In this document: positions 5,812 through 55,979 of the stretch, piece after piece
Layout of the letters: each line of letters begins with the position of its first letter
How positions within the stretch are numbered: position 1 is the first letter of the stretch
Origin: Janthinobacterium sp.
Lineage (GTDB): Bacteria > Pseudomonadota > Gammaproteobacteria > Burkholderiales > Burkholderiaceae_D
Length of the DNA: 64,000 nucleotides
Reading direction: 5' to 3'
Assembly (NCBI RefSeq): GCF_009923995.1
Contig: NZ_RFSK01000007.1
Span: forward strand, 1 to 64,000
Position numbers and translations under genes: made by a program
The notes under the pieces: generated by a model
What the model was told of the DNA's origin: nothing
What the model saw: only the letters and a program-made list of their open reading frames with translations
Database searches by the model: none

Positions 5812-6207
5812 TTATTTCGTCGGTGCGGGCGGGGCCGGCACGTCAGCGGCCTCTTCGTCGTGCTGTTTCTGTTTCTTCTTGCCCAGGTCAAATTCCAGCA
5901 CCTTCCATTGCGGGCCGCGCAAGGTGGCGCTGTTGGCCGGGTCGGCGCCGGCAGCAGGCTTCATGTAATACGTGCTGCCGCCGCTGGTGACTTTCACTTC
6001 GGACGTCACGCCCGCTTCGCGTTTCTCGGTAATCTGCTGTCTGGGTGCCGCCGGTGCCACGGTGATGGGCGCTTCGCCCATTTCCTCGATACGCTCCAGC
6101 TGCGGCGGCGCGTCGCTGGGCTTGGCCGGCGTCTGGGCGCTGGCAATGGCTGAGCATGCCAGCAACGGCAGGGCGAGGAATGTCCAGAGTGTCGATGTAC
6201 GCATCAT
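5812..6207 (-). CDS. DUF2782 family exported protein
   Basis: A 131-residue protein with a signal peptide (about 24 residues, cleaved near ASAQ), a Pro/Ala-rich linker, and a short conserved core around residues 40-105 (LERIEEMGEAPITV, EKREAGVTSEVKVTSGGSTYYM, PQWKVLEFDLGKKKQ). The core is typical of DUF2782, a small periplasmic family often found near polA and thrB in Burkholderiales. Function unknown. It is probably the first gene of the minus-strand unit continuing into thrB, with an 81-base gap. Confidence 0.8.
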   Translation of the reverse strand: MMRTSTLWTFLALPLLACSAIASAQTPAKPSDAPPQLERIEEMGEAPITVAPAAPRQQITEKREAGVTSEVKVTSGGSTYYMKPAAGADPANSATLRGPQWKVLEFDLGKKKQKQHDEEAADVPAPPAPTK

Positions 6208-6497
6208 GATGGGTTCGCTTCCATGTGGTGGACTGCAGAAAATGCAGTGGTCATGCCGTCAATTTATCTATAAGGCATTGTAACAAACTGGTAGGCAATG
6301 CTGTTTACTATGCGCGGAAATCGGCCGGGGCGCGCGCCTGCGCGGCCACACGGGGCCGCCAGGGTGGTAAAAAAGGCAAGGGCGGCATGCGTCGCGGCCG
6401 GTGGCGCGGCCCCAAACTCTGCGATAATTGGACGATATTCCACCCGCCCGCCGCACTCTTCCCAGGCAGGCGCGGTCCACCTTATTTTATTGGCATT

Positions 6498-9257: not shown

Positions 9258-9258
9258 T

Positions 9259-9364
9259 GCGGTGTCGGCTTGCGCGGGGCATGCCCCGCCAGGCCGGCCT
9301 ACGTGCCAATCAGGAGTGACGAGCAATGACAGTAGGTCGGCTTAGCGCAGCGTACGCCGACATT
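9259..9364. repeat. REP-like pair of palindromic elements
   Basis: Two inverted-oriented copies of a GTCGGCTT-type palindrome lie between polA and the next gene. The first, 9263-9302, starts TGTCGGCTTGCGC, has the inner palindrome GCGGGGCATGCCCCGC, and ends CCGGCCTAC. The second, 9332-9362, reads GTAGGTCGGCTTAGCGCAGC and continues to GCCGACA. The head-to-head layout resembles bacterial interspersed mosaic elements. Confidence 0.6.
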
Positions 9365-9393
9365 TCCAAACGCAATACCTTCAGGAGAAACGC

Positions 9394-10278
9394 ATGAGCG
9401 ACATGATCACCGATTGTGAAAGTTTGCTGGGCCAGAGCAGCTTGTCCGGGCCGGATGGCCGGCGTGGCTTCCTGAAGGTGGCGCTGGGAACGGGCTTTGC
9501 CGTGGCCGTGCTGCCCGTGGCGGCGCAAAACGTCGTCAAGACGGACACGGCGGGCTTGCTGACGGGCACCATGTCCGTGATGGTCGATGGCCAGGCCGTG
9601 CCCGTGTATGCGGCCCAGCCGGAAGGCAAGACGGGCTTGCCCGTGGTGCTGGTCATTTCCGAAATTTTTGGCGTGCACGAGCACATTGCCGACATGGCGC
9701 GCCGTTTCGCCAAGCAGGGCTACCTGGCGCTGGCGCCCGATCTGTTCGTGCGCCAGGGCGACCCGACCAAGGTCAGCAGCATTCCCGAGTTAATGAAAGG
9801 CATCATCTCCAAGACGCCGGACGCCCAGGTGATGGCGGACCTCGATGCCGTTGTCGCGTGGGCGAAACAGAATGGGGGCGACACGAGCCGCCTGGGCATC
9901 ACGGGTTTTTGCTGGGGCGGGCGCATCACCTGGCTGTATGCGGCGCACAATCCGGCCGTCAAGGCGGGCGTGGCCTGGTATGGCCGCCTCGTGGGCGAGC
10001 CGACTGCCTTGCAGCCTAGCAACCCCATCGATATCGCCGCCACCCTGACGGTGCCCGTGCTGGGCTTGTACGGCGGCAAGGATACGGGCATCACGCAGGA
10101 ATCGATCGCGAAGATGAAGGCGGCGCTGGCCAAGGGCGGCAACAAATCGGAGTTCGTCGTGTATCCCGATGCGGGCCACGCCTTCAATGCCGATTACCGC
10201 CCCAGCTACGTGGCGGCCGATGCGAAGGATGGTTATGCGCGCTGCCTGGCCTGGTTCAAGCAGCATGGCGTGGCGTGA
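9394..10278 (+). CDS. Dienelactone hydrolase family protein, twin-arginine exported
   Basis: A 294-residue alpha/beta hydrolase of the dienelactone hydrolase family. The catalytic triad is visible: the Cys nucleophile in GFCWGG (about 172), Asp in GGKDTG (about 228) and His in DAGHAF (about 260). The N-terminus carries RRGFLKVALGTGFAVAVL, a twin-arginine signal followed by a hydrophobic stretch, so it is probably exported folded to the periplasm. Similar Tat-exported proteins are common in proteobacteria and the true substrate is unknown. It appears to be a single gene. Confidence 0.85.
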   Translation: MSDMITDCESLLGQSSLSGPDGRRGFLKVALGTGFAVAVLPVAAQNVVKTDTAGLLTGTMSVMVDGQAVPVYAAQPEGKTGLPVVLVISEIFGVHEHIADMARRFAKQGYLALAPDLFVRQGDPTKVSSIPELMKGIISKTPDAQVMADLDAVVAWAKQNGGDTSRLGITGFCWGGRITWLYAAHNPAVKAGVAWYGRLVGEPTALQPSNPIDIAATLTVPVLGLYGGKDTGITQESIAKMKAALAKGGNKSEFVVYPDAGHAFNADYRPSYVAADAKDGYARCLAWFKQHGVA

Positions 10279-10527
10279 ACGCGGGCGTTAAAGGGTGCCA
10301 AACAGCGCTAAAAGCATTTATTTTCAGTAATTTTATCCAACAGTAACGCGAAAGGCGCACCGGGCTGTAAAATGCCCGGTTCGCGTCAATGCAGTACAAT
10401 TGCATCTTCCCTGCGCTACGCCGTCGCCAAGCGCGCAAAAAATTGAATAATAAGCAATACTATAGTCATCAGGCCAGACGCCAGCATAGCGGGCGCCAGT
10501 GGGCAGGCGCCATTTTGAGGTAAGAAA

Positions 10528-11313
10528 ATCATCGATCCCGTCCTTATATCCATTTTGCTCGCGACCACGATCGCGGGCGTGTTCAGCATTACCGCGGCGG
10601 CGATCTTTTCGTTTGCATTCCTGTCCAAGGTGGTGGAGCGCATGGTCAGCTTGTCCGTCGGCATCATGCTGTCGACGTCCTTGCTGCACGCCTTGCCGGA
10701 AGCGTTCGAGTCGCAGGCCGACCCGCGCAGCCTGTTTGCCACCCTGCTGGCGGGCTTGCTGGCCTTTTTCATGCTGGAAAAATTCGCCATCCTGCGCCAT
10801 TCGCACCACCACGAAGGCGACGGCCACCACCATGCGCACGGCCACGACAAGCACGAGGCGGGCAAGGCCGGCTGGATGATTTTAGTGGGCGACGGCATGC
10901 ACAATTTTACGGACGGCATTTTGATCGCCGCCGCCTTCCTGGCCGATCCGAAACTGGGCCTGGTCACGGGCCTGGCCATCATCGCGCATGAAATTCCGCA
11001 GGAAATCGGCGATTTCATCGTGCTGCTCAACGCCGGTTTCTCGCGCCTGCGCGCCTACATCTTCAATCTGCTGTGCAGCCTGATGGCGGTGGCGGGCGGC
11101 CTGCTCGGCTACTTCACCCTGGACCGCGCCAGCAACCTGATTCCTTACGTGCTCGTGTTCGCCTCGTCCGGCTTCATCTATATCGCCTTGAGCGACCTGA
11201 TGCCGCAGATGCAGCGCCGCTCCACCTTGCGCGAAACCATCCCGCAGGTGCTCCTGATCGCGCTGGGCGTGTGCATCGTGCTGTTCCTGACGCACAAGCG
11301 CCACGGCGGTTGA
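10528..11313 (+). CDS. ZIP-family metal transporter, apparent ATC start
   Basis: A 261-residue divalent-metal transporter of the ZIP family in the inner membrane. The metal-binding helices carry GDGMHNFTDGI and AHEIPQE, the hallmark of TM4 and TM5. Between TM3 and TM4 is a histidine-rich cytoplasmic loop (about residues 90-112). A start at the TTG at 10555 would leave the first helix short and has no ribosome-binding site. The sequence TGAGG (10516-10520) lies seven bases before an in-frame ATC at 10528, which gives IDPVLISILLATT as the natural first helix. I therefore propose ATC initiation. Zinc is the usual ligand, but specificity is not visible. Confidence 0.8.
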   Translation: MIDPVLISILLATTIAGVFSITAAAIFSFAFLSKVVERMVSLSVGIMLSTSLLHALPEAFESQADPRSLFATLLAGLLAFFMLEKFAILRHSHHHEGDGHHHAHGHDKHEAGKAGWMILVGDGMHNFTDGILIAAAFLADPKLGLVTGLAIIAHEIPQEIGDFIVLLNAGFSRLRAYIFNLLCSLMAVAGGLLGYFTLDRASNLIPYVLVFASSGFIYIALSDLMPQMQRRSTLRETIPQVLLIALGVCIVLFLTHKRHGG

Positions 11314-11353
11314 TGCACTGATTCGGTGCCGCAGTACCGCCTATGCTATATTG

Positions 11354-11379
11354 CCTTTCTGACTAACTTGCACAGAAAG
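11354..11379 (+). promoter_or_regulatory. Hairpin overlapping the leader-ORF ribosome-binding site
   Basis: CCTTTCT (11354-11360) pairs with AGAAAGG (11374-11380), with a 13-base loop. The right arm runs into the strong Shine-Dalgarno AAGGAGG (11377-11383) of the 29-codon ORF at 11392. Formation of this stem would partly hide that site. A second pairing partner, CCTCCT, lies downstream at about 11502-11507. Confidence 0.4.
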
Positions 11380-11391
11380 GAGGAAAATATC

Positions 11392-11481
11392 ATGGAAGAA
11401 AACTTGTTGCTCGCCTTGTGGCGCGCACGCTCTTTAAGCGCCTTTGTCCGCTCTTGCCCACGTTCTATCGCGCTGCGATAA
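11392..11481 (+). CDS. Possible 29-residue leader peptide before the ABC-F gene
   Basis: An ORF of 29 codons (MEENLLLALWRARSLSAFVR and nine more residues) with the strongest ribosome-binding site in the neighbourhood (AAGGAGG, optimal spacing). It ends 108 bases before the ABC-F ATPase. It has several Arg and Leu codons but no striking run of one amino acid. ABC-F resistance genes are often controlled by translated leaders, so a regulatory role is possible but unproven. No other function is apparent. Confidence 0.4.
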   Translation: MEENLLLALWRARSLSAFVRSCPRSIALR

Positions 11482-11589
11482 CCTGGCCAGAGCAAAGTTA
11501 CCCTCCTCTACGAGTCCTTTCCTGGTACTCCGTTGTCGTTAGCGCTCCTGTTAACGCGGATGCTTGCATCCCGAACAAAGACAAGAGCC

Positions 11590-13332
11590 ATGACTACCCT
11601 GATCTCGACACAAGCATTACAGCTGGATACCCACGACGGTTTCCTGTTCCATGAACTCGCCTTTACCTTGCGCCAGGGCGACCGCATCGGCTTGACCGGC
11701 CACAATGGCTGCGGCAAATCCACCTTGCTGGGCCTGCTCGCCGGCACGCGGGAAGCCACCGCCAGCACCATCCACTATGCCCGCGCCTGCCGCCTGCAGC
11801 ACGTGGAACAGCACTTGCCGGCGGACCTTGCCAGCCTGAGCCTGTACGACGCCTTGCTGGCCCCCGTGCTGGAGCAGCCCGAGCTGCATTGGCGGGTCGA
11901 CAGCCTGCTGGCCGAACTGGGCTTCGACCTGGAGACGGCGCAAGTGCCCGTGCACTCCCTGTCCGGCGGCCAGCACACGCGGCTGCTGCTGGGGCGTGCC
12001 CTGCTGCAGGAGCCGAACGTGCTGCTGCTGGACGAACCGAGCAATCACCTGGATTTGCCATCCTTGCTGTGGCTGGAGCAATTTCTGTTGCGCTGGCGCG
12101 GCGCCTTCATCCTCGTCTCGCACGACCAACGCCTGCTCGACAACGTGGCCACGCGCAGCTGGATCCTGCGCGATGGCCGCCTCTACGATTTCGACTTGCC
12201 GTGCGGCCCCGCGCTGGCGGCGCTGGCCGAAGCCGATCTTGCCGCCGCCGCCAGGCATGCGGCCGAACAGAAGGAAATCGACCGCCTGTCGGCCAGCAGC
12301 GCCCGCCTGGCCCTGTGGGGCCGCACCTACGACAATGAGGACCTGGCGCGCAAGGCCAAGACCATGCAGCGGCGCATCGATAAATTGAAGGATGCGCAAG
12401 CATTCGTCAGCGATGGCGCGCCGTGGCGCTTGAGTCTGAGCGGCAAGGCGCTGGCGGCGGACCAGTTGCTGGCGCTGGACGGGCTGGATGTGCGCGCCGT
12501 GCCCGCCTCTCCCGTGCTGTTCCAGGTCGGCCAGCTGTGGCTGAAACCGGGCGACCGGGTCGCCTTGCTGGGCGCCAACGGCAGCGGCAAGTCCTCCTTG
12601 CTGCGCTTGTGCTGGCAAGCCATCCAGGCGGGGGAAGAACGGGCGGACTTGCGCTACCACAAGGCGGCAAGCATCGGCTATTACGACCAGTCGCTGCGGC
12701 AGCTGGCCGACGACGCGGACTTGTCCGACGCCCTGTACCCGTTTGCCGCGCAGAACGAGGCTGCCCGCAGCCAGGTGGTGCGCAGGCAGGCGCTGATCGG
12801 GGCCGGTTTCCCGTATGCGCGCCATGGCCAGACGGTGGCCACCCTGAGCGGCGGCGAGCGGGCGCGGCTGCTGTTCCTGGGCCTGTCCCTGGCCAGCTAC
12901 CACTTGCTGCTGCTCGATGAACCCAGCAACCACCTGGACATGCAGGGCAAGGCGGAGCTGGGGTTGGCCCTGCGCGGCTTCGAAGGGGGCTGCCTGCTGG
13001 TGTCGCACGACCGCGACCTGATCGAAACGGCTTGCAACCGTTTCTGGGTGGTGGCCGATGGCCGGCTGGAAGAGTGGCTTGACGCGGCCAGTGCGTATGC
13101 GCGGCTGAGTCTTGAGGATGGGCAGGCACCAGCGTGCGCGCCGCGCGTGGAAACGGCTGCGCTTGCGCTGGCGCAAACCGGCGTCGATGTGCAATTGGAG
13201 CGTTTGTGCGAGCTGGAGCAATTGCTGGCGCAAGACCTGGCGAGAAAACCGCGCCACCAGAAGCGGGCCAGCCAGCAGGCGTGGCAGGACGAGATCGCGT
13301 ATTTGAACCGCGCTTTGGGCATCATGCCCTAG
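11590..13332 (+). CDS. ABC-F family ATPase (ribosome-associated type)
   Basis: A 580-residue soluble protein with two ABC ATPase domains and no membrane segments, typical of ABC-F translation factors or antibiotic-protection proteins. Domain 1 has Walker A GHNGCGKST (37-45), signature LSGGQ (about 124-128) and Walker B LLLDEPSNHLDL (about 145). Domain 2 has GANGSGKSS (about 328), LSGGE (about 419) and LLLLDEPSNHLDM (about 439). A charged helical linker with KAKTMQRRIDKLK (about 258-270) corresponds to the P-site tRNA-interaction motif region. The C-terminus is short and basic. The ATG at 11590 is the natural start. Whether it protects the ribosome from antibiotics or is a housekeeping factor cannot be decided here. 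Confidence 0.88.
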   Translation: MTTLISTQALQLDTHDGFLFHELAFTLRQGDRIGLTGHNGCGKSTLLGLLAGTREATASTIHYARACRLQHVEQHLPADLASLSLYDALLAPVLEQPELHWRVDSLLAELGFDLETAQVPVHSLSGGQHTRLLLGRALLQEPNVLLLDEPSNHLDLPSLLWLEQFLLRWRGAFILVSHDQRLLDNVATRSWILRDGRLYDFDLPCGPALAALAEADLAAAARHAAEQKEIDRLSASSARLALWGRTYDNEDLARKAKTMQRRIDKLKDAQAFVSDGAPWRLSLSGKALAADQLLALDGLDVRAVPASPVLFQVGQLWLKPGDRVALLGANGSGKSSLLRLCWQAIQAGEERADLRYHKAASIGYYDQSLRQLADDADLSDALYPFAAQNEAARSQVVRRQALIGAGFPYARHGQTVATLSGGERARLLFLGLSLASYHLLLLDEPSNHLDMQGKAELGLALRGFEGGCLLVSHDRDLIETACNRFWVVADGRLEEWLDAASAYARLSLEDGQAPACAPRVETAALALAQTGVDVQLERLCELEQLLAQDLARKPRHQKRASQQAWQDEIAYLNRALGIMP

Positions 13333-46735: not shown

Positions 46736-48217
46736 ATGGACCTTAAAACTTCTGGGGATTGGCCGCTGCCGTCTGGCGTCTGGCAGTTGGATGACGCCGG
46801 TGTCTGGACCTTGCAGCGCAGCGCGGACGGCCAGAACGTCTCGCCCTTGCTGAGCAATGCCGATATCGGCAAGCTGATGCACGCCCGGCGCCTGCCCGGC
46901 GCCGCCGGCGCGCCCGTGCGCCAGTTTCCGCCCGAATTCGCCTTCGATCCCGCCTCCGGCGCCGCCCTGCAGGTGCCGCCGGACATGCCGGCGCCGCCCT
47001 GGGTGCCGCCCTACGGCGCGCAGCCCGTCAGCGACGTGCCGCCGGCCGGCGCGGCCGGCCTGCGCCAGGCCAGCGTGCCCCTGAAGCTGGCGGACCAGCG
47101 TACCCGCGAGGAACATGCGCAGGCGGACGCCTCCCTGCCCATGCCGCCGCCGGGCGAATACGAATTCTTTTCCGCCCAGTTCGGCACCTGCGGCGCCGCG
47201 CTGCTGGCCCTCGAGCCGCGCAAGGCAGCCCTGCACGCCTGGCTGCCCGCCTCGAAGCGCTGGCTGGCGCTGGAGCCGGAATACGGCGGCTTGCTGGCCG
47301 AATCGGACATCGCCCACGGCGCCTGGCGCGCCGAACTCGTGTCGGAATTTAACAGCGTGCTGGTCTTGCCGACCAGCCACGGCCTGGCCGTCATCCGCCC
47401 CGACGTGCCTTCGCTCACCTATGTGGTCGAGCACGTGGGCGGCGCGCCGTGCGTGGCGGCCCCCGTCTGGTTCCAGAACCGCCTGTGGGCGCCCGTGCGC
47501 GACGACGATGGCCGCATCCGCTTCGTCAACCTGGATGCGGCGCAACAGCCGGGCAGCGACGTGCTGCTCGACGGCGCCGCGGCACTGGGCACCGTCAGCG
47601 CCCCCGTGGCCTACAACCGCATGGCCGTCTGGCCTTGCGCCAACGGCCAGCTGCGCCTGCAGCTGCAGCCCGATGGCAACGTGGCCGCCTCGTTCATGCC
47701 CTGGCCCGACGGGCTGGTGCCGCATTTCGAGTTCGGCAGCCCCTACCTGTCGCGCGACGGCGGCCTGTGGCAGCTGTGCTTTGAAAGCCGCCGCGGCACC
47801 TATGTGTACGTGAAACTGGGCGGCCAGCCGGAGCAGGCCGACGCGCTGGCGCCGCGCCTGTGTTCGGGCAGCTTCAACTACCGCTTCGCCGCCAAGCTGA
47901 AAACGGCGCCGTGGGAAGAGCCGGAACACGGCGACGACGGCGGCAAGAACCAGGCCGTCATGCCGCTGCTCGAATCGGGCACGGGCGGCAGCGTCTTCGG
48001 CGTGAAGTTCGCCACCAGCGCCGGCCTGTCCAGCGTGCTGCGCTCGAGCGACCGCCTGGCCGCGCAGCTGGTGCAGGACGACGAGCTGCGTGAAACCGTG
48101 TTCCACACCTTCGCCGTCAGCGAGCCGTGGCGTCTGCGCCTGTTCGTGCATGAAGGCATGCTGTGGGCGTATCACCCCTTGCTGTCGCGCATCGATGGCT
48201 GGAATCTGCAGGCATGA
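46736..48217 (+). CDS. Unknown protein, first gene of the tubulin-like operon
   Basis: A 493-residue protein without signal peptide or membrane helix. The N-terminus (SGDWPLPSGVWQLDDAGVWT) is followed by a Pro/Ala-rich linker (about 75-125) and a beta-rich body (about 130-490) with repeated aromatic and Gly motifs such as ALLALEPRKAALHAWLP, SNLVLPTSHGLAVI-like and GGLWQLCFESRRGTYVYVKL. A beta-propeller is possible but unproven. I recognise no family. The ATG at 46736 is used; a GTG at 46709 is also in frame. Its stop overlaps the next gene by four bases, so the two are coupled. Probably a cytoplasmic partner of the tubulin-like system. Confidence 0.75.
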   Translation: MDLKTSGDWPLPSGVWQLDDAGVWTLQRSADGQNVSPLLSNADIGKLMHARRLPGAAGAPVRQFPPEFAFDPASGAALQVPPDMPAPPWVPPYGAQPVSDVPPAGAAGLRQASVPLKLADQRTREEHAQADASLPMPPPGEYEFFSAQFGTCGAALLALEPRKAALHAWLPASKRWLALEPEYGGLLAESDIAHGAWRAELVSEFNSVLVLPTSHGLAVIRPDVPSLTYVVEHVGGAPCVAAPVWFQNRLWAPVRDDDGRIRFVNLDAAQQPGSDVLLDGAAALGTVSAPVAYNRMAVWPCANGQLRLQLQPDGNVAASFMPWPDGLVPHFEFGSPYLSRDGGLWQLCFESRRGTYVYVKLGGQPEQADALAPRLCSGSFNYRFAAKLKTAPWEEPEHGDDGGKNQAVMPLLESGTGGSVFGVKFATSAGLSSVLRSSDRLAAQLVQDDELRETVFHTFAVSEPWRLRLFVHEGMLWAYHPLLSRIDGWNLQA

Positions 48218-49683
48218 AGGCGCGCGCCCTGATCGCGGCCTGCGCCGCCTTGCTCAGTGCGGCCAGCGTGCACGCGGCCGGCATCCAGCAAGCCTTCCTG
48301 GTGCAGAACTCGGGCTGGATGGAGCCGTTCTACACGGATGAGCACTCGCAGCTGAAAGCCCTCGTGGGCGCCGTGGCGCAGGCCGCCACCAGCCCGTCCG
48401 ACAAAGTCTATACCTTGGCCTTCAGCCAGAGCAGCGGGGGCAATGTGTCGCCCGCGCTGCTGGGGCAAGGCCAGGGTGGCGCCGGCGTGGCGGGCCAGCT
48501 GGCACCGCTGGGCCTGGCGCGCAAGGGGGCCGGCGGCGCGCTGGCCGACACGGACTTCCAGGAAGCCGTCACGAAGACCATCACGGGGCCGTTCCAGTCC
48601 GCCTCGGGCATCGTATGGATCTTTACCAACAACAAGAACAGCCCGAACAACGACAGCCAGACGGCCGAGCGCAACCGTGACTTTTACCGCCTGCTGCACC
48701 TGGAGCCGTCGATCACCAAGACGGTGGTGTTTCCGCTGCGCATGCCGGTGCAGGGCAAGCTGTACAGCGCCAAGGGCTTGATGGTGTATGCGCTGGCGTA
48801 CGGCCAGCCGGCGTCCGAGGCATTGAACCGCATCCTGGCCGAAGGGCGGCTGTCGCAAGTGCTGACGCGTCCGCCCGCGCGCCTGAAACCGGTGGACCAG
48901 GATGCCGTGCGCATCGTGCCCCAGTCCGTCAAGAACAGCGACAACGTGCACGCCAGCCTGGGCCGCGACGGCCGCACCATCGTGCTCGACGTCGACGCGG
49001 CGAAGCTGGTGCCGCAGGTGCAGCTGCAGGCATCCCTGCAAAACATGTTCTTCCCGTATGTCATCGACAGCGCCAGGGTGCATGCCACGCTGGCGGGGCA
49101 GGACGCGCCCCTGCATGTTGCGCCAGATCAAATCCATCACTTGCAGCCGGGCGCCAGCCAGTCCGTGCAGGTACAGTTTTCCCTGCCGATGGCGCAGATA
49201 CCGTCGCCGTGGTCGGCGCAGGCCATCGCCGCCATGGGCAAGCAGGTGCTGCTGCCCATGCGGGCGCAGGTGGGCCTGTCGGAGCAGCGGCTGGCGCTGG
49301 CATCGAGCTTCGGCAAGGATTTGCAGGAACTCTTCCCCGGCGACCCCATCTCGGACATGTTCACGCCGCCCGACAGCGTGCGCGCCTCGCAGGCAACGAT
49401 TCCCTTGCTGGTGCGCATACAGTATCCGCTGCTGCCCGTGCTGGCGATGCTGGGCGGCATCCTGGCATTCGTGCTGGGCCTGCTGGCGCTGGGCTTTGCC
49501 GGCACGCGCGCGGCGCGCTACAAGGTGCTGGTCGATGGCGTGCAGCGGCAAGTGCTGCTGAAACCGTTCAAGAGCGTGCAGATCCGCGATGACAACGGCC
49601 GCGACATCGGCGAACTCAAGCGTGGCCTGGGCCAGCCGCACGTCGTGCGCGTGGCCGAGGGCCATACGCTGAGCCTTATCTGA
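48214..49683 (+). CDS. Membrane-anchored protein with degenerate vWA-like domain
   Basis: A 489-residue protein with a signal peptide (about 22 residues), a large extracytoplasmic part (23-400), one transmembrane helix (about 404-430) and a 60-residue cytoplasmic tail. Near the mature N-terminus AFLVQNSGWMEPFY matches the position of the vWA MIDAS loop (DxSxS), but with Gln/Asn in place of the first Asp and Trp for the third residue. Further on, SGIVWIFTNNKNSP sits where the usual TDG strand-loop would be. Metal binding is therefore doubtful. The C-terminal tail resembles a small beta domain (RYKVLVDGVQRQVLLKPFK). The vWA link is my inference from sequence. Confidence 0.6.
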   Translation: MKARALIAACAALLSAASVHAAGIQQAFLVQNSGWMEPFYTDEHSQLKALVGAVAQAATSPSDKVYTLAFSQSSGGNVSPALLGQGQGGAGVAGQLAPLGLARKGAGGALADTDFQEAVTKTITGPFQSASGIVWIFTNNKNSPNNDSQTAERNRDFYRLLHLEPSITKTVVFPLRMPVQGKLYSAKGLMVYALAYGQPASEALNRILAEGRLSQVLTRPPARLKPVDQDAVRIVPQSVKNSDNVHASLGRDGRTIVLDVDAAKLVPQVQLQASLQNMFFPYVIDSARVHATLAGQDAPLHVAPDQIHHLQPGASQSVQVQFSLPMAQIPSPWSAQAIAAMGKQVLLPMRAQVGLSEQRLALASSFGKDLQELFPGDPISDMFTPPDSVRASQATIPLLVRIQYPLLPVLAMLGGILAFVLGLLALGFAGTRAARYKVLVDGVQRQVLLKPFKSVQIRDDNGRDIGELKRGLGQPHVVRVAEGHTLSLI

Positions 49684-49727
49684 GCAAAATTTCTTTTTAC
49701 ACTATTCAAACCCATCAGAGGCATACC

Positions 49728-50177
49728 ATGGCGCAAGACACTCCAAAAGACAACACCGGCTTCACTTTGCCGGCCCCGGTAACGGCCCCGGCGTCGGCAC
49801 CGCCGGCCGCGGACGCTTCCGCCGCGGCCAGCGCCGCCACGGGCACGACGGAACCGGCACCGGCGTTTGATGCGGCCGGCACGACGGATACCTCGTCGCG
49901 CGACACCCTGATCGGCGGCGTCGTGCTGTTGCTGCTGTTCATCGCCTTTTTCTTTGCCAAGAATGCCTACGCGAATGGCCTCGTAGCCAAGCGCGTGCCG
50001 CCGAACAAGGCCAACGCCTCGGGCTGGTGGCTGTTCATCTTCCTGGCCAGCCTGGCGACCGGTGTCGTGCTGGCGGCCGTGAACGCGCATAAATTCCTCG
50101 CGCCCCTGTTCATGGCGCCGCTGGTGCTGGTGGGCCTCGTCGCCCTGTTGCTGACATTTACCTCGAGCCGCCGCTAA
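49728..50177 (+). CDS. Small three-helix membrane protein of the tubulin-like operon
   Basis: A 149-residue protein. The first 58 residues are low-complexity Ala/Pro/Thr. Three membrane helices then follow: about 61-78 (LIGGVVLLLLFIAFFFAK), 99-116 (WWLFIFLASLATGVVLAA) and 122-143. It probably docks other components to the inner membrane. No family recognised. Confidence 0.7.
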   Translation: MAQDTPKDNTGFTLPAPVTAPASAPPAADASAAASAATGTTEPAPAFDAAGTTDTSSRDTLIGGVVLLLLFIAFFFAKNAYANGLVAKRVPPNKANASGWWLFIFLASLATGVVLAAVNAHKFLAPLFMAPLVLVGLVALLLTFTSSRR

Positions 50178-50213
50178 GAACACGCCGTTGCACGCATCAT
50201 CGAAGGAATCACC

Positions 50214-53200
50214 ATGGCAGAGAACCTGAACCAAACCATCACCGGCGGCGCCAGCGAGCGCAAGCAGGACAAGATCATCGAACTGCGCCCGACCCTGTTC
50301 ATCGGCATCGGCGGCACGGGCATGCAGGTGCTGATGCGCGTGCGCCGGCGCATCCTCAACACCCTGTGGGGCGGCGCGGGCAACCGCACGCGCATCGAGG
50401 GGCTGGCCGATTTTCCCATCGCGCAATTCATCCATTTCGACCTCGACAATGGCGCCGTGATCGAAAGCGGCGAGTCGCAGGCGAAGGACTTGCAGTTCGA
50501 CCAGGTGAAGTTCACGGACGATGACAAGGTGGTCGAATCTTTCGACATGGACAAGTACAGCCGTGACGAAGATTCCTTGGAGAAATATCCGCACATCAAG
50601 GAATGGCTGCCGTTGACGCCGCAGCGCATCCGCGAGCTGCGTTTCGACATGAGCAGCGGCGCGGGCCAGATCCGTGCCGTGTCGCGCCTGTATTTCTTCG
50701 ACAAGTACGCCAAGATCCGCGACAAGATCCGCCTGAAACTGAAAGCCCTGAAGGCGGGCCTGTCGCACGAGCGCCAGTTGGCCGAACTGGGCTTGCGCAT
50801 GGAAACGAACCGTTTCCGCATCGTCATCGTCGGTTCCGTGGCCGGCGGCACGGGGTCCGGCTCCTTCCTGGACATGGGCTTGCTGGCACGCTGGCTGGCG
50901 CGCAGCGAAGTGGGCGCGGCCGACGTGGAACTCATGCTGTTCTTGCCCACCGGCTACACCAAGGCCAACAAGGACAGGGTCGAGGCGAACGGCTACGCGG
51001 CCCTGATGGAGCTGGAATCGGCCATGATGGGCAACAAGGGCTACGTGGGCCGCTGGGACGCATATGACCGCCCGGAACTGACGCGCGAGCCGTACAGCGA
51101 GGTGTACCTCATCGATTCGGGCAATCTTGCCCAGCAGCACACCAAGGAGGTCAGCGACGTCTACCACATGGTGGCCGACTCGCTGTTCGAGGATTTCGCC
51201 TCGGCCGACTTCGCGCGCGCCAAGCGCTCGATCGCCGTCAACCAGGCGCAGCACAAGAATTCCCTGTACAACGCGCCCGTGCCGCAAGACCGCTTCGGCG
51301 ACATGCGCCTGTATTTCTCGAAGCGCTTTTCCTCGTTCGGCATGGCCGTGCTCGATACGCGCCAGGAAGCGGCGCGCGACGAGCGGGCCCACCGCTGGGC
51401 CGGCGCCATGCTGCAAGCCTTCTTCGGCGTGGGCGGCACGGATGCGGCCGCCAACCGCGCCACGGATACGCAGCGCGATAACTTCCTCGCCGCGAACATG
51501 TTCCTCAAGGGCACGCCGTTCAGCGACTTCCCCGAGTTTTCCGACAAGAGCATCGAACTGAAGCGCTCCAGCGGCGATTTCATCGATTTCCGCGTCGTCG
51601 ACGAGTTGCTGGAAGACCGCCACGGCCACCTGCTGGCCGGCGTGGAAAACCGGGTCAATACGCGCGTCAACGATATCCGCACGGGCTTCGACCGCAGCGA
51701 ATGGCCGGCCCAGGTGCGCGACGCCATGAAGCACCTGGAGCGCGACGCCGTGCGCGACCAGGATTCCACGGCCGACACGACGGAAGACCGCATCAGCAAG
51801 CGCCGCCGCGAAGTGCTCGAGGACGTCAAGAAGGTGGTGCGCGACCAGCTGTATGGCTATCTGGACAATAAGGAGTTCGGCGGCCTGGAATACGTGCTGT
51901 CGCTGGTGGAACAGATCAAGGACCGCATCGAGGCGCCCGGCAGCGGCCTGACGGCGCAGATCGGCGCGAATGCCGAGCGCTACCGCGAAATCAAGGAAGC
52001 CGTGCGCTCGCGCGAGTACGAGCGCCTGCTGAACAACCTGGAGCAGACGCGCAGCACCTTCGGCTTCCTCAGCAATGGCGAAAAGCAGGCGGGCGTGGTG
52101 ATGGACCATCTGCGCACGGAAATGGCGAATGCCCTGAAATTCCATTTGCGGGCCAAGGCGGCCGACGAGTCCGTCATCCTGCTGGGCGAACTGTCGCGCT
52201 GGCTGGGCAACCGCGTCGGCGTCGATGCGCAGGGCCGCGCCCAGTGGAATGGCCTCGTGGGCGAGCTGCAGGCGGGCCGCGAAGGCGTGCTGGCCATGCT
52301 GGCGGAACTCAAAACGGCCAATACCATCCTGCAAAAGGACCTGGACAAGGAACACGCGACCCTGATCGTCATTCCCGTCACGGAAAAAGACATTGCGCTG
52401 CCGTCGGCGGCCACCTTGCGCCAGTGGGCCGATGAAGCGTTCAAGGACATGGGCGGCTCGAAAGCCCTGTTCCCCATGCTGGGCGAACCGGCGCAGCGGG
52501 GCTTGATCCTAGCCAAGGTGACGCGCATGGCGGAGAACATGATCGCCACGGCGGGCCTGGCCGAAGGGGCGACGAGCACGCCCGATCCCCTGTTCGAGGC
52601 ATTGGAACAGATGGACGTGTCCGAACGCCTGGACCGCTTCCGCAAGCTGCTGGCCTGCTCCATGCCGTGGATCGACGCCAACATGGCGGGCGATTTCACG
52701 GTCGTGTCGGATCAGTTCAAGTGCGTGATCGGCGTGGCCAACGCGGCCGCCTTCAAGGCGAAGTTCGGCGCCGAGCTCGAATCGTGCGTGCCGACCCAGG
52801 TGGGCATCACGGTGAGCCAGCTGGAAATCGTCGAGACGGGCATCCGCGGGCGCGCCGTCTGCTACTGCGAGCTGGCCGGCGTGCCGATGACGGTGCTGCG
52901 GGGCCTGGAAGGCTGGCGCACGAGCTACCGCAAGGAAGGTGACAACGACAAGGCGCCGACCCACACGCACATTGATCCAACGCAATTCACGCATCCGATC
53001 GCGCCGAACACGGACGAGATGAAGCGCCTGGCGGAAGACTTCGGCGAATTCCTGCAAGCCATCATGCTGGGCGTGCTGACGCGCCACACGGGCCGCGTCG
53101 TGCCGCCGGGCCAGTACCAGTTCGCCGTCGAGCCGGGCGACTTGCGCCGCATCGGCAATGAACGGGCCATCCGCCAGAACGGCATGCCCGCTTCGTACGA

Positions 53201-53927
53201 GAAAAATATCGCCCTGCGCATCGAGGAAAAATTGACGGCGCTTGACGCCGTGCAGACGGCGGCCATGGCCGCGCTGGCAAAATACTATGAACGGGGCGTG
53301 TATGCGCCCAAGCTGGTGGCGCAGGCCGATGGCTCGCAGCTGCCCTACATCGGCTTTGGCAGTGCCATTGCGGCCGAGGTGGGCGCGCGCCTGCGCGAAT
53401 CGGCGCGCCGCAAGGGCATGGCCAGCGACGAGCTCGACCGCACGGTGCAAGCCTTGCTGGGCCGCCTGAAGGAATGGGCGAACGTCATCGGCGACTCCGA
53501 CAGCGATGCCTACGACTGGGAAGTACGCGAGCCGGAAGCGGATGGCCAGCCCCGTCTGAAATACGCGATCAAGCCGGAAATGCTGGAAGCGGGGCGCCTG
53601 GAGCATCTGCTGCGTCCGGCCGGCGCACCGGCCGCGGCGGCGCCGTTTGGCGCGGCCGCAGCGGCCTTCGGCATGGCGCCGCCTCCGCTGGGCGGCATGC
53701 CGCCGCCGCTGGTGGAACACCAGTATTTCCTGGGCATCAATGGCCAGCAGCAGGGACCGTTCACGGCCCAGCAGATCGTGCAGTACGTGCAGGCAGGGCA
53801 GCTTGCACCAGCCACCACCAAGGTGTGGCGCGCCGGCTTGCCGGCCTGGGTTGACCTGGCTCAGTTCGCCGAACTGGCACCGCTGTTCCACAGCGCGCCG
53901 CCACCGCTGATGCCGCCACCGTTGTGA
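50214..53927 (+). CDS. Tubulin/FtsZ-like protein with C-terminal GYF_2-like domain
   Basis: A 1,237-residue protein. The N-terminal Rossmann-like start reads FIGIGGTGMQVLMRV (about 29-43). Near 207-225 is VGSVAGGTGSGSFLDMGLLA, containing the GGTGSG phosphate loop typical of tubulin/FtsZ GTPases (Tubulin_2-type). The middle 700 residues are long and helical (KDRVEANGYAALMELESA, RRREVLEDVKKVVRDQLY), far larger than FtsZ. Residues about 1125-1165 are Ala/Pro-rich, and 1168-1225 form a GYF_2-like domain (YFLGINGQQQGPFTAQQIVQ, KVWRAGLPAWVDLAQ) for binding proline-rich peptides. The Pro-rich neighbour at 53,961 is an obvious candidate ligand. GTP binding and polymerisation are inferred. Confidence 0.82.
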   Translation: MAENLNQTITGGASERKQDKIIELRPTLFIGIGGTGMQVLMRVRRRILNTLWGGAGNRTRIEGLADFPIAQFIHFDLDNGAVIESGESQAKDLQFDQVKFTDDDKVVESFDMDKYSRDEDSLEKYPHIKEWLPLTPQRIRELRFDMSSGAGQIRAVSRLYFFDKYAKIRDKIRLKLKALKAGLSHERQLAELGLRMETNRFRIVIVGSVAGGTGSGSFLDMGLLARWLARSEVGAADVELMLFLPTGYTKANKDRVEANGYAALMELESAMMGNKGYVGRWDAYDRPELTREPYSEVYLIDSGNLAQQHTKEVSDVYHMVADSLFEDFASADFARAKRSIAVNQAQHKNSLYNAPVPQDRFGDMRLYFSKRFSSFGMAVLDTRQEAARDERAHRWAGAMLQAFFGVGGTDAAANRATDTQRDNFLAANMFLKGTPFSDFPEFSDKSIELKRSSGDFIDFRVVDELLEDRHGHLLAGVENRVNTRVNDIRTGFDRSEWPAQVRDAMKHLERDAVRDQDSTADTTEDRISKRRREVLEDVKKVVRDQLYGYLDNKEFGGLEYVLSLVEQIKDRIEAPGSGLTAQIGANAERYREIKEAVRSREYERLLNNLEQTRSTFGFLSNGEKQAGVVMDHLRTEMANALKFHLRAKAADESVILLGELSRWLGNRVGVDAQGRAQWNGLVGELQAGREGVLAMLAELKTANTILQKDLDKEHATLIVIPVTEKDIALPSAATLRQWADEAFKDMGGSKALFPMLGEPAQRGLILAKVTRMAENMIATAGLAEGATSTPDPLFEALEQMDVSERLDRFRKLLACSMPWIDANMAGDFTVVSDQFKCVIGVANAAAFKAKFGAELESCVPTQVGITVSQLEIVETGIRGRAVCYCELAGVPMTVLRGLEGWRTSYRKEGDNDKAPTHTHIDPTQFTHPIAPNTDEMKRLAEDFGEFLQAIMLGVLTRHTGRVVPPGQYQFAVEPGDLRRIGNERAIRQNGMPASYEKNIALRIEEKLTALDAVQTAAMAALAKYYERGVYAPKLVAQADGSQLPYIGFGSAIAAEVGARLRESARRKGMASDELDRTVQALLGRLKEWANVIGDSDSDAYDWEVREPEADGQPRLKYAIKPEMLEAGRLEHLLRPAGAPAAAAPFGAAAAAFGMAPPPLGGMPPPLVEHQYFLGINGQQQGPFTAQQIVQYVQAGQLAPATTKVWRAGLPAWVDLAQFAELAPLFHSAPPPLMPPPL

Positions 53928-53960
53928 ACGCTGGAATGACGTTGGAATGAAGGAATAGTT

Positions 53961-55205
53961 TTGGATATCTGCATCAAATGTAAAACGGGCCTGTGGACCG
54001 CCGTCAGCCATTGCCCGTACTGCGGGCAGGCGCAGGCTGGCGCGGTCCAGCCAGCGGTAGCCGTGCCGCCGCCGCTGCCGCCCGCGCCCGTGCCACCGCT
54101 GGTCGCGCCCAAGCCGCCGCCCGTGCCGGTGGCGCCAGCACCTGCGCCGCAAGCCCAGCCGGTGCCGAAACCGCCGCCCACGCCCAAGCCGGCGCCGGCA
54201 GCGGAACGCGTGAAGGACATCCCGCCGGCCGCCGTGCCGAAGCCCGTGCCCGTGCCGCCGCCAGCTGCGCCGGTGGAAGCGCCGGCGCCTTCGCGCCGCT
54301 GGCTGAAATGGCTGGCCGGCATCGCCGCGCTGGGCGCCGTCATCGTCTACATGAACGGCACGCCGGGCGGCAAGAATGACTCGGCGTGCAACGATGCCAT
54401 CGACAGCGGCCTGAGCCTGGTGGCGAATGGCAGCCTCGATGGCGCGCGGCAGAAGCTGGCGACGGCGAAAAGCGCGTGCACGGGCAAGTCCAGCGCCAAG
54501 GCCGACGATCTGCAGGCGGCCATCGCCAAGGCCGGCGCCGCATCGGGCGGCTGCCAGCGCGGCGTGCGCGCCATCGAGCGCGCCATCGACGGACACCGCC
54601 TGCAAAGCGCCGCCAAGGCCATTGCCGCCCTCGACGCCGATTGCGCGGGCGCCGCCAGCGTGGAATCGCTGCGCAAGCAGCTGGTGCGCCAGCAGGCGGC
54701 CGCCGCGTCCGTGCAGGTGGGCGTGCGCCAGGCGCTCGATGGCAAGGATGTGAACGGGGCGCAGAACGGCATCGCCCGGCTCGAAGCCATCGACCGCGAA
54801 GCGCCGGAATTGGCGCAGCTGAAGGCCGACGTGCAAGCGCTGTCGGCGGCTGCGGCGCCCGCGCCCGTGGCTGCCCCGGCCGCGGCGCCGCTGGAAACGG
54901 CGCCGGTCCGCGCCGTGCCAGCGGAGCCGGCCCCGGCGCGCATCGCCGAACGTCCGACCGTGGCGGAGCGCCGCGTGCCGGAGACGGCGCCCGCGGACAA
55001 TGGCGCGGCCATGCGCAACGAGATGGCGCAATCGTTCCTGCGCGATGCCGAGCGTTCCTTGAACGAAGGCAAGTTCGATGCGGCCAAGACTTACCTGGAC
55101 AGCGCGCGCCGCGCCGATCCCGGCAATGCGCGCATCGACAGCCTGTCGCGCCGCATCCGCGAGCGGGAACGGCAAGTGCTGCAGACGGAAACCACGATTA
55201 AATAG
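53961..55205 (+). CDS. Zinc-ribbon, proline-rich, single-pass membrane protein
   Basis: A 414-residue protein. It has an N-terminal zinc ribbon with C4, C7, C18 and C21 (CIKC...CPYC), a strongly proline-rich segment (about 30-108), one membrane helix (about 114-131) and a helical part with four more cysteines up to about 225. A second linker (about 295-345) and a TPR-like end (SFLRDAERSLNEGKFDAAKT) follow. The Pro-rich part is cytoplasmic if the ribbon is, and could bind the GYF_2-like domain of the preceding protein. TTG at 53961 is the only plausible start (AAGGAA upstream). Confidence 0.7.
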   Translation: MDICIKCKTGLWTAVSHCPYCGQAQAGAVQPAVAVPPPLPPAPVPPLVAPKPPPVPVAPAPAPQAQPVPKPPPTPKPAPAAERVKDIPPAAVPKPVPVPPPAAPVEAPAPSRRWLKWLAGIAALGAVIVYMNGTPGGKNDSACNDAIDSGLSLVANGSLDGARQKLATAKSACTGKSSAKADDLQAAIAKAGAASGGCQRGVRAIERAIDGHRLQSAAKAIAALDADCAGAASVESLRKQLVRQQAAAASVQVGVRQALDGKDVNGAQNGIARLEAIDREAPELAQLKADVQALSAAAAPAPVAAPAAAPLETAPVRAVPAEPAPARIAERPTVAERRVPETAPADNGAAMRNEMAQSFLRDAERSLNEGKFDAAKTYLDSARRADPGNARIDSLSRRIRERERQVLQTETTIK

Positions 55206-55220
55206 TTATTGGGAGTAAAC

Positions 55221-55979
55221 ATGATGAATAAAACCACCTTGCGCGCGGCTGCCGCGCTGACCATCGCGGCCATGCTGGCCGGCTGCGCCACGGCGCCGAT
55301 GAACCCGAACGGCGTGCGCCAGGATTATCCGCAAGGCCCGCAAGGTGGCCAGAACCCGCAGGCTGGCGCGACGGACGAGGACCCGTGCAGCGTGGGCGCG
55401 ACGGCGGCGGCCGGCGCGGCCGTGGGCGCCTTGCTGGGCGCCCTCGTCAGCGGCAAGAATGGCGCGCTGAAGGGCGCGGCCATCGGCGGCGGCCTGGCGG
55501 CGGCCGGCTGCCTGGCCATCAATGTCAATTCGCGCCAGACCAAGACGGCGGCGCAGGCGGACCGCGACTACATCCGCGCCCGCGGCGCGCTGCCGCGCGA
55601 GCCGCAGGTGGTGTCGTACACGCCGCAGCTGAGCGCCTCCACCGTCAAGCGCGGCCAGCCGTTCAAGGTCACGTCCGTCGTGGAACTGGTCAATGGCAGC
55701 GCGCAAAGCGTCAACGACGTGCGCGAAGAGCTGGTGGTGCTCGATCCGCAAGGCCAGCCGTTCAAGTCCGGCTCGAAAGCCTTGGCTAGCAGCAATAAAT
55801 CGGGCGGCCGCTTTGAAAATTCGTTCGAGCTGACCTTGCCGGCCGGCGTCTCGCAGGGCGTGTACGGCGTCAAGACGAACCTGTACGTGAACGGCAAGCT
55901 GTCCGCCACGCGCGATCTGCGCACGCAGCTGGTGATGCTGGACGACACCAGCGGCGCGGCGCAGCTGGCGCAGCGGTAA
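55221..55979 (+). CDS. Glycine-zipper lipoprotein of the tubulin-like operon
   Basis: A 252-residue lipoprotein with lipobox MLAGC at about residues 17-21. A glycine-zipper segment (about 57-95: AAAGAAVGALLGALVSGKNG, GAAIGGGLAAAGC) should insert in or pack on a membrane. A C-terminal beta-sandwich-like domain (about 120-245: FKVTSVVELVNGSAQSVNDV, FENSFELTLPAGVSQGVYG) resembles an Ig-like fold. Last gene of the operon, probably the outer-membrane end of the system. Confidence 0.75.
   Translation: MMNKTTLRAAAALTIAAMLAGCATAPMNPNGVRQDYPQGPQGGQNPQAGATDEDPCSVGATAAAGAAVGALLGALVSGKNGALKGAAIGGGLAAAGCLAINVNSRQTKTAAQADRDYIRARGALPREPQVVSYTPQLSASTVKRGQPFKVTSVVELVNGSAQSVNDVREELVVLDPQGQPFKSGSKALASSNKSGGRFENSFELTLPAGVSQGVYGVKTNLYVNGKLSATRDLRTQLVMLDDTSGAAQLAQR

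What the first reader, a model, noticed from the sequence alone, without database searches (positions are those of the whole stretch)
46736..55979. Six-gene operon around a tubulin-like GTPase, a candidate envelope-spanning cytoskeletal system
Seen: six same-strand genes with gaps of -4, 44, 36, 33 and 15 bases. They encode an unrecognised cytoplasmic protein, a single-pass protein with vWA-like N-terminus, a three-helix membrane protein, a 1,237-residue protein with tubulin GIGGTG and GGTGSG motifs, a zinc-ribbon/Pro-rich/membrane protein and a glycine-zipper lipoprotein. Known: Makarova and Koonin described FtsZ-like families linked by genome context to vWA proteins and membrane proteins in proposed membrane remodelling. 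Inference: this set links a cytoplasmic filament to both membranes. The combination with a GYF_2-like domain and a Pro-rich partner is not one I know as characterised.
Basis: partly seen in the sequence, partly recalled or inferred. Interest (0 to 1): 0.88.

Follow-up and report, generated by a model that had tools for sequence, protein, structure and literature searches.

The report
Six-gene bacterial tubulin-like envelope system
A soil and water bacterium carries a compact block of six genes, built around a very large relative of tubulin, that is kept together across several bacterial groups and looks like a machine running from the cell interior into the envelope, whose job I found no test of.

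Summary
Observation confirmed: six same-strand genes at 46736-55979, gaps -4, 44, 36, 33, 15. The 1,237-residue protein is a clear Tubulin_2/FtsZl1 member (PF13809, E 4e-61) fused to a GYF_2 domain. The block is discrete: 22 of 28 related loci hold all six genes in order, four are cut by contig ends, and two Endozoicomonas-type loci hold g1-g4 plus a gene of g5-like layout. In the genus its site is empty in four of five genomes checked that lack the window's type. g1 and g2 occur in all 31 of 145 family genomes with a strong g4. New here: g2 carries a periplasmic vWA-like domain whose metal site is lost yet invariant (QNSGWM, 29 of 29). An inner-membrane and periplasmic layout is well supported by sequence. 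Filament formation and function are untested, the outer-membrane link is not general (g6 in 1 of 9 subtype-2 regions), and the GYF/Pro-rich g5 pairing is poorly conserved. I file it as a new variant of the predicted FtsZl1 systems; my paper searches showed no characterised member.

The parts
46736..48217 (+). g1: soluble protein, 493 aa, no Pfam family; blade-like W/G-rich repeats seen by eye suggest a beta-propeller (inference, not tested). Endozoicomonas-type orthologs have four N-terminal cysteines of zinc-ribbon type that are lost here
48214..49683 (+). g2: signal peptide, periplasmic vWA-like domain, beta-sandwich, one transmembrane helix, small beta domain predicted cytoplasmic
48286..48867 (+). 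vWA-like domain of g2 (residues 25-218)
   Evidence: AF2 secondary-structure order; hhalign to 29 VWA_2 proteins, P 3e-4, probability 39.7, 147 columns
48304..48321 (+). QNSGWM: invariant replacement of the MIDAS DxSxS loop
   Evidence: 29 of 29; 13 of 13 rows
49432..49500 (+). g2 transmembrane helix (residues 407-429)
49728..50177 (+). g3: small protein with three transmembrane helices
   Evidence: three hydropathy segments in 29 of 29
50214..53927 (+). g4: FtsZl1 (Tubulin_2) protein, 1237 aa, long mostly helical middle, C-terminal GYF_2 domain
50295..51410 (+). Tubulin_2 domain (PF13809) of g4, residues 28-399
   Evidence: E 4e-61
53724..53876 (+). GYF_2 domain of g4, residues 1171-1221, with PPPL motifs on both sides
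   Evidence: E 3.4e-12; best solved relative is a chain of a gliding motility protein, 7z3c, E 7.9e-9; PPPL
53961..55205 (+). g5: N-terminal zinc ribbon, Pro-rich linker, probable membrane helix, periplasmic region
53970..54023 (+). CxxC...CxxC zinc ribbon of g5
   Evidence: 23 of 23
55221..55979 (+). g6: predicted lipoprotein with glycine-zipper-like segment
   Evidence: lipobox by a loose pattern in 23 of 23; weak Pfam hits below cut-off
55275..55286 (+). lipobox LAGC of g6
   Evidence: sequence

Best explanation
The six genes encode a self-contained inner-membrane and periplasmic complex organised by an FtsZl1-type tubulin-family GTPase. Shown by sequence: g4 is a soluble Tubulin_2 protein with a GYF_2 tail; g2 and g3 (and probably g5) are membrane proteins, g2 with a vWA-like domain behind a signal peptide and g5 with an N-terminal zinc ribbon; g6 has a lipobox; g1 is soluble. 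Inferred: g4 binds GTP and assembles on the inner membrane, held by g3 and by the cytoplasmic parts of g2 and g5, with its GYF_2 domain binding PPPL segments of neighbouring g4 subunits and, in Janthinobacterium, of g5. The vWA-like domain of g2 and the periplasmic part of g5 bind an envelope partner or g6, so that assembly inside and binding outside control each other. g1 acts as a cytoplasmic adaptor. The likely output is local scaffolding or remodelling of the envelope rather than cell division, since the genome also has an ordinary FtsZ-type gene.
For: Family membership of g4. Topology of the partners. All six genes together in 22 of 28 loci; g1-g4 in 9 of 9 subtype-2 regions and g5 in 8 of 9. 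g1 and g2 present in all 31 of 145 family genomes whose g4 passes the Pfam cut-off. Different flanks in other genera. Layout of g5 kept while its periplasmic module is a PEGA domain in the Endozoicomonas type. vWA and membrane partners were already noted for FtsZl1 operons (PMC2875224). Tubulin_2 of one or the other subtype in 38 of 40 genomes of the genus, which fits a physiological role. A related Tubulin_2 protein has a sub-cut-off hit to PF00091 Tubulin, E 0.0031.
Against: No test of GTP binding, assembly or localisation is known to me. The g4 model is poor; all listed Foldseek E-values are above 0.03 and the first row is a nuclear pore protein at probability 0.09. Direct profile comparison of g4 with FtsZ aligned only the GGTG loop (P 0.044 and 0.029). 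Makarova and Koonin could not identify the T6-H7 elements in FtsZl1, so filaments are uncertain. g6 is absent from 8 of 9 subtype-2 regions. The g5 Pro-rich linker is not conserved. None of the 50 Foldseek rows listed for g2 is a vWA match by title, and the loops of its presumed metal site have pLDDT under 50.
Confidence: 0.5

Rival explanations
1. It is a regulated conflict or cell-fate system: the tubulin-like protein is a GTP switch or assembly platform, the vWA-like and beta-sandwich parts sense a threat at the envelope, and the output is damage or dormancy.
For: Kaur et al. 2020 place tubulin plus vWA operons among GTPase-centred conflict systems (PMC7159879 section 29). Other Tubulin_2 operons lie beside caspase genes (Azospirillum plasmid; L077 and L163), a CHAT gene (L077) and brxL. 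Across the family the block is patchy, 31 of 145 genomes and 7 of 44 genera, and its site can be empty.
Against: The six proteins match no PADLOC model at E up to 1; no effector-like enzyme was recognised among the six; within the genus Tubulin_2 is near-universal, 38 of 40; no match in phage records or, by two peptide patterns, in viral contigs.
Confidence: 0.25
2. It is a surface machine such as a motility or adhesion complex, working somewhat like the Myxococcus focal adhesion, with g4 as the cytoplasmic platform and g5 as a coupling protein.
For: The best solved relative of the GYF domain is a gliding motility protein (7z3c, E 7.9e-9) and NCBIfam gliding_GltJ matches it far below its cut-off (27.5 of 450 bits).
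Against: Only the GYF domain matches, a common module; no motor protein was recognised among the six.
Confidence: 0.1
3. It is a signalling or transport regulator without a filament, as a reviewer of the 2010 paper proposed for FtsZl1.
For: Reviewer comment in PMC2875224 (passage); T6-H7 elements not identifiable in FtsZl1.
Against: The reviewer's example rested on a transport gene beside the Polaromonas gene; none of the six proteins here matches a transport family.
Confidence: 0.15

Closest known systems
FtsZl1 / Tubulin_2 (PF13809) systems of Makarova and Koonin 2010 (PMC2875224)
   Same: g4 is a strong member; a vWA-like protein and membrane proteins are encoded alongside
   Different: GYF_2 fused to the tubulin-like protein; metal site of the vWA-like domain lost; no kinase, P-loop GTPase or OmpA match among the six proteins (a kinase gene lies upstream of g1 in L057)
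Tubulin-containing GAP1-N2 GTPase-centric systems (Kaur et al. 2020, PMC7159879)
   Same: tubulin-domain protein with vWA and membrane partners
   Different: described there for firmicutes and actinobacteria with GAP1, GTPase and FNIII proteins; none of these matched among the six proteins here
Other Tubulin_2 operon in some Janthinobacterium genomes (L163, L164)
   Same: Tubulin_2 beside a protein with an N-terminal cysteine ribbon and helix, and a glycine-rich envelope protein
   Different: shorter (994 and 1001 aa); in L163 no GYF match and a caspase-domain gene beside it
GltJ of Myxococcus gliding motility
   Same: GYF domain; a zinc ribbon in the same protein is recalled, not tested
   Different: only the GYF part matches

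Membership tests
Tubulin_2 / FtsZl1 | PF13809 above its curated cut-off | tested here: met
   207.7 bits against cut-off 27
Tubulin_2 / FtsZl1 | glycine-rich GTP loops T1 and T4 | tested here: met
   both in the window; strict patterns G[IV]GGTGM and AGGTGSG each in 27 of 29
Tubulin_2 / FtsZl1 | vWA-domain gene in the operon (frequent, not universal) | tested here: met
   vWA-like domain of g2 by profile alignment, P 3e-4, probability 39.7; no Pfam hit in the window protein
Tubulin/FtsZ superfamily | tubulin GTPase fold | tested here: inconclusive
   low-confidence model; 44 of 50 listed Foldseek rows tubulin or FtsZ by title, E above 0.03; profile test against FtsZ not significant
Tubulin/FtsZ superfamily | T7 catalytic loop and polymerisation | not testable with these tools
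   needs a confident structure or an assay
vWA domain | intact MIDAS (DxSxS, T, D) | tested here: not met
   D to Q, second S to W, final D to N, T kept
vWA domain | alternating alpha/beta order of the vWA fold | tested here: met
   AF2 elements in residues 25-218, with low-confidence loops; Foldseek rows listed showed no vWA entry by title
Known anti-phage systems | match to a PADLOC model | tested here: not met
   0 families for 6 of 6 proteins
GAP1-N2 conflict systems | GAP1 and GTPase components | tested here: not met
   no such match in the six proteins; the flanks were not scanned for them

The most novel reading that the evidence does not exclude
The block encodes a tubulin-based trans-envelope machine: a GTP-driven cytoplasmic polymer mechanically coupled through g2, g3 and g5 to a metal-free vWA-like adhesion domain in the periplasm and, where g6 is present, to a lipoprotein in the outer membrane.
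Probability: 0.22. Interest if true: 0.85.

Novelty: new variant of a known kind. Interest (0 to 1): 0.57.

Why it matters
FtsZl1 proteins were predicted in 2010 to run membrane remodelling systems, and my searches of an open-access library listed no experimental study of one (judged by titles and abstract starts). This block gives a bounded six-gene set, with sister genomes in which the same site is empty, so the role of a whole tubulin-family branch could be tested by one clean deletion. The invariant QNSGWM loop is a precise target for mutation.

Tried and rejected
Phage or plasmid origin: no match to g4 in phage records; in viral contigs two peptide patterns gave 199 stretches, none a relative; 4 plasmid records hold distant g4 relatives; no g2 in plasmids. 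PADLOC: nothing. Promoter and terminator scans: nothing above chance. Profile comparison of g4 with FtsZ: not significant. Mirror-tree: gene distances correlate 0.38-0.87 across 13 representatives, lowest for g4 with g6 and g2, so the block may be partly mosaic. Paper searches on GltJ and GYF gave nothing useful.

Rows dropped or not used: 27 of 30 FtsZ loci were kept (short pieces or no GGTG dropped), 29 of 29 vWA loci and 17 of 20 receiver loci. In one search the pattern meant to add L077 and L079 found nothing, so three distant Tubulin_2 sequences were added. In one search two hits (g5 in L065, g6 in L064) were set aside because they lie on the other strand. The neighbour listing was cut in output; its hit table was complete. 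ORF picking is crude and some genes were called on the wrong strand.
Full report
Observation. Six same-strand ORFs lie at 46736-55979 with gaps -4, 44, 36, 33 and 15. Pfam gives g4 Tubulin_2 (E 4e-61, residues 28-399) and GYF_2 (E 3.4e-12, residues 1171-1221); g1 and g2 have no family at E up to 1, g3 and g5 none above cut-off, g6 only weak glycine-zipper, DUF533 and MG2 hits. The best g4 matches are Janthinobacterium genomes at 95-98%.

Is the block real? Of 28 related loci from named genomes, 22 carry g1-g6 in order, 4 end inside g5 at a contig end, and 2 (Endozoicomonas, Parendozoicomonas) carry g1-g4 followed by a gene with a cysteine ribbon, linker, helix and PEGA domain, a g5-like layout. 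Nine of the 28 are not named Janthinobacterium. Clustering of neighbouring ORFs shows flanks shared among the Janthinobacterium loci and between L045 and L046; the other lineages have different immediate flanks, though a few clusters recur elsewhere in single loci. So the unit is bounded by g1 and g6. dN/dS is 0.035-0.33 for the six genes against three relatives.

Co-occurrence. Among 145 family genomes, 31 have g4 above the Pfam cut-off (32 at E 0.001; G031 is a weak hit with no g1 or g2). All 31 have g2 and g1, though the g1 match is partial in G094 and split in G113. G009 has g1 and g2 without a g4 match, in a fragmented genome. In the order 7 of 300 and in the phylum 5 of 299 genomes have PF13809 at E 0.001 (4 of 299 over cut-off), both counts including genomes already listed, so the family is sparse.

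A second subtype, about 41% identical in g4, was read in nine regions (L061-L068, L070): g1-g4 are present in 9 of 9, g5 in 8 of 9 and g6 in 1 of 9; L069 and L076 are full blocks of the window's type. In the genus, 38 of 40 genomes have Tubulin_2: by score I count 32 of the window's type, 5 of subtype 2 and 1 in fragments. Subtype 2 was checked by tblastn in two of the five (G746, G753). No genome scored for both types, which suggests equivalent function (inference).

Site. In the window the block lies between two genes that I name rfaE2-like and trmL-like from recall. In four genomes counted as subtype 2 the matched ends of these two genes are 16, 61, 115 and 158 bases apart; in G048 they are 9.4 kb apart around the block; in G747, which has no Tubulin_2 match, the site holds two other ORFs. 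I read this as gain or loss of the whole block at a permissive site.

Protein g2. The AF2 model (pLDDT 72.9) gives an N-terminal helix of signal-peptide type, an alternating alpha/beta domain at 25-218, a beta-sandwich region at 232-403, a helix at 407-429 and a small beta domain; residues 32-39, 101-113 and 140-146, the loops of the presumed metal site, are under 50. The 50 Foldseek rows listed are mostly beta-sandwich proteins and show no vWA entry by title. Profile alignment of the N-terminal part with 29 VWA_2 proteins gave P 3e-4 (probability 39.7) over 147 columns, against P 0.029 (38 columns) for FtsZ and 0.23 (22 columns) for receivers. It sets QNSGWM on DxSGSM, ADTD on the MIDAS Thr, and TNN on the final Asp. 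QNSGWM and ADTD are in 29 of 29 and 13 of 13 rows, nine of them subtype 2. So this is probably a vWA-like domain with a lost but invariant metal site.

Protein g4. The AF2 model is poor (54.5). Of the 50 Foldseek rows listed, 44 are tubulin, microtubule or FtsZ entries by title, at E 0.036 or worse; the first row is a nuclear pore protein. Profile comparison with FtsZ aligned only the GGTG loop. GYF_2 was matched in the three relatives scanned: one subtype-2 protein, one Endozoicomonas and one Azospirillum plasmid protein. PPPL occurs in the last 130 residues of 27 of 29 g4 proteins and nowhere else in them; the g5 linker has PPPL in 13 of 29 proteins, only Janthinobacterium rows, and is 8-11% Pro in the Endozoicomonas type.

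Wider family. Distant Tubulin_2 genes sit near caspase, OmpA and DUF4384 genes (Azospirillum plasmid; L077), a CHAT gene (L077), or vWA plus brxL (Meiothermus and Thermus plasmids); a fourth plasmid record, a cyanobacterium, shows none of these in the stretch read. Three Janthinobacterium genomes carry an extra Tubulin_2 gene; two were read, and in L163 it lies near a caspase-domain gene and a TPR protein with an N-terminal cysteine ribbon.

Literature. Makarova and Koonin 2010 (PMC2875224; parts 1 and 2 of 5 and passages seen) defined FtsZl1 and predicted membrane remodelling, leaving filaments open. Kaur et al. 2020 (PMC7159879; passages and section 29) place tubulin and vWA operons among conflict systems. 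PMC9871819 (passages) treats Tubulin_2 as divergent. No experimental study of a Tubulin_2 protein appeared in the listings; the library lacks most subscription papers.

Verdict. A genuine, bounded, conserved operon of the FtsZl1 kind in a new variant. The inner-membrane and periplasmic layout is well supported by sequence, while polymerisation, outer-membrane coupling and function are inference.

Noticed in passing
L163 (about 6000-13085), L164 (about 5949-13068): A separate Tubulin_2 gene in three Janthinobacterium genomes, two of them read; in L163 it lies near a caspase-domain gene, a TPR protein with a cysteine ribbon and a glycine-rich envelope protein.
   Followed up: partly
L082 and L083: Meiothermus and Thermus plasmids carry vWA, Tubulin_2, an unknown protein and brxL in a row; in Meiothermus DUF1156 and Swt1-HEPN genes lie upstream.
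   Followed up: no
L080: Azospirillum plasmid with g3-like and g4-like genes, no g2 match, and three caspase-family genes nearby.
   Followed up: partly
L042, L043, L053, L058, L060: In these Janthinobacterium loci g4 is only 71-75% identical to the window while g6 is 84-90%, hinting at exchange of parts of the operon.
   Followed up: no
L167: The block's site in G747 holds two other ORFs, patatin-like and SGNH-hydrolase-like by eye, so the site may be an insertion hotspot.
   Followed up: no
L057 and L059, start of g1: g1 of the Endozoicomonas type has cysteines of zinc-ribbon type that are lost in the Burkholderiales proteins.
   Followed up: no
L057:4180-5058: A protein kinase gene (Pkinase E 8.8e-11) lies just upstream of g1 in Endozoicomonas; kinases are frequent partners in FtsZl1 operons.
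   Followed up: no
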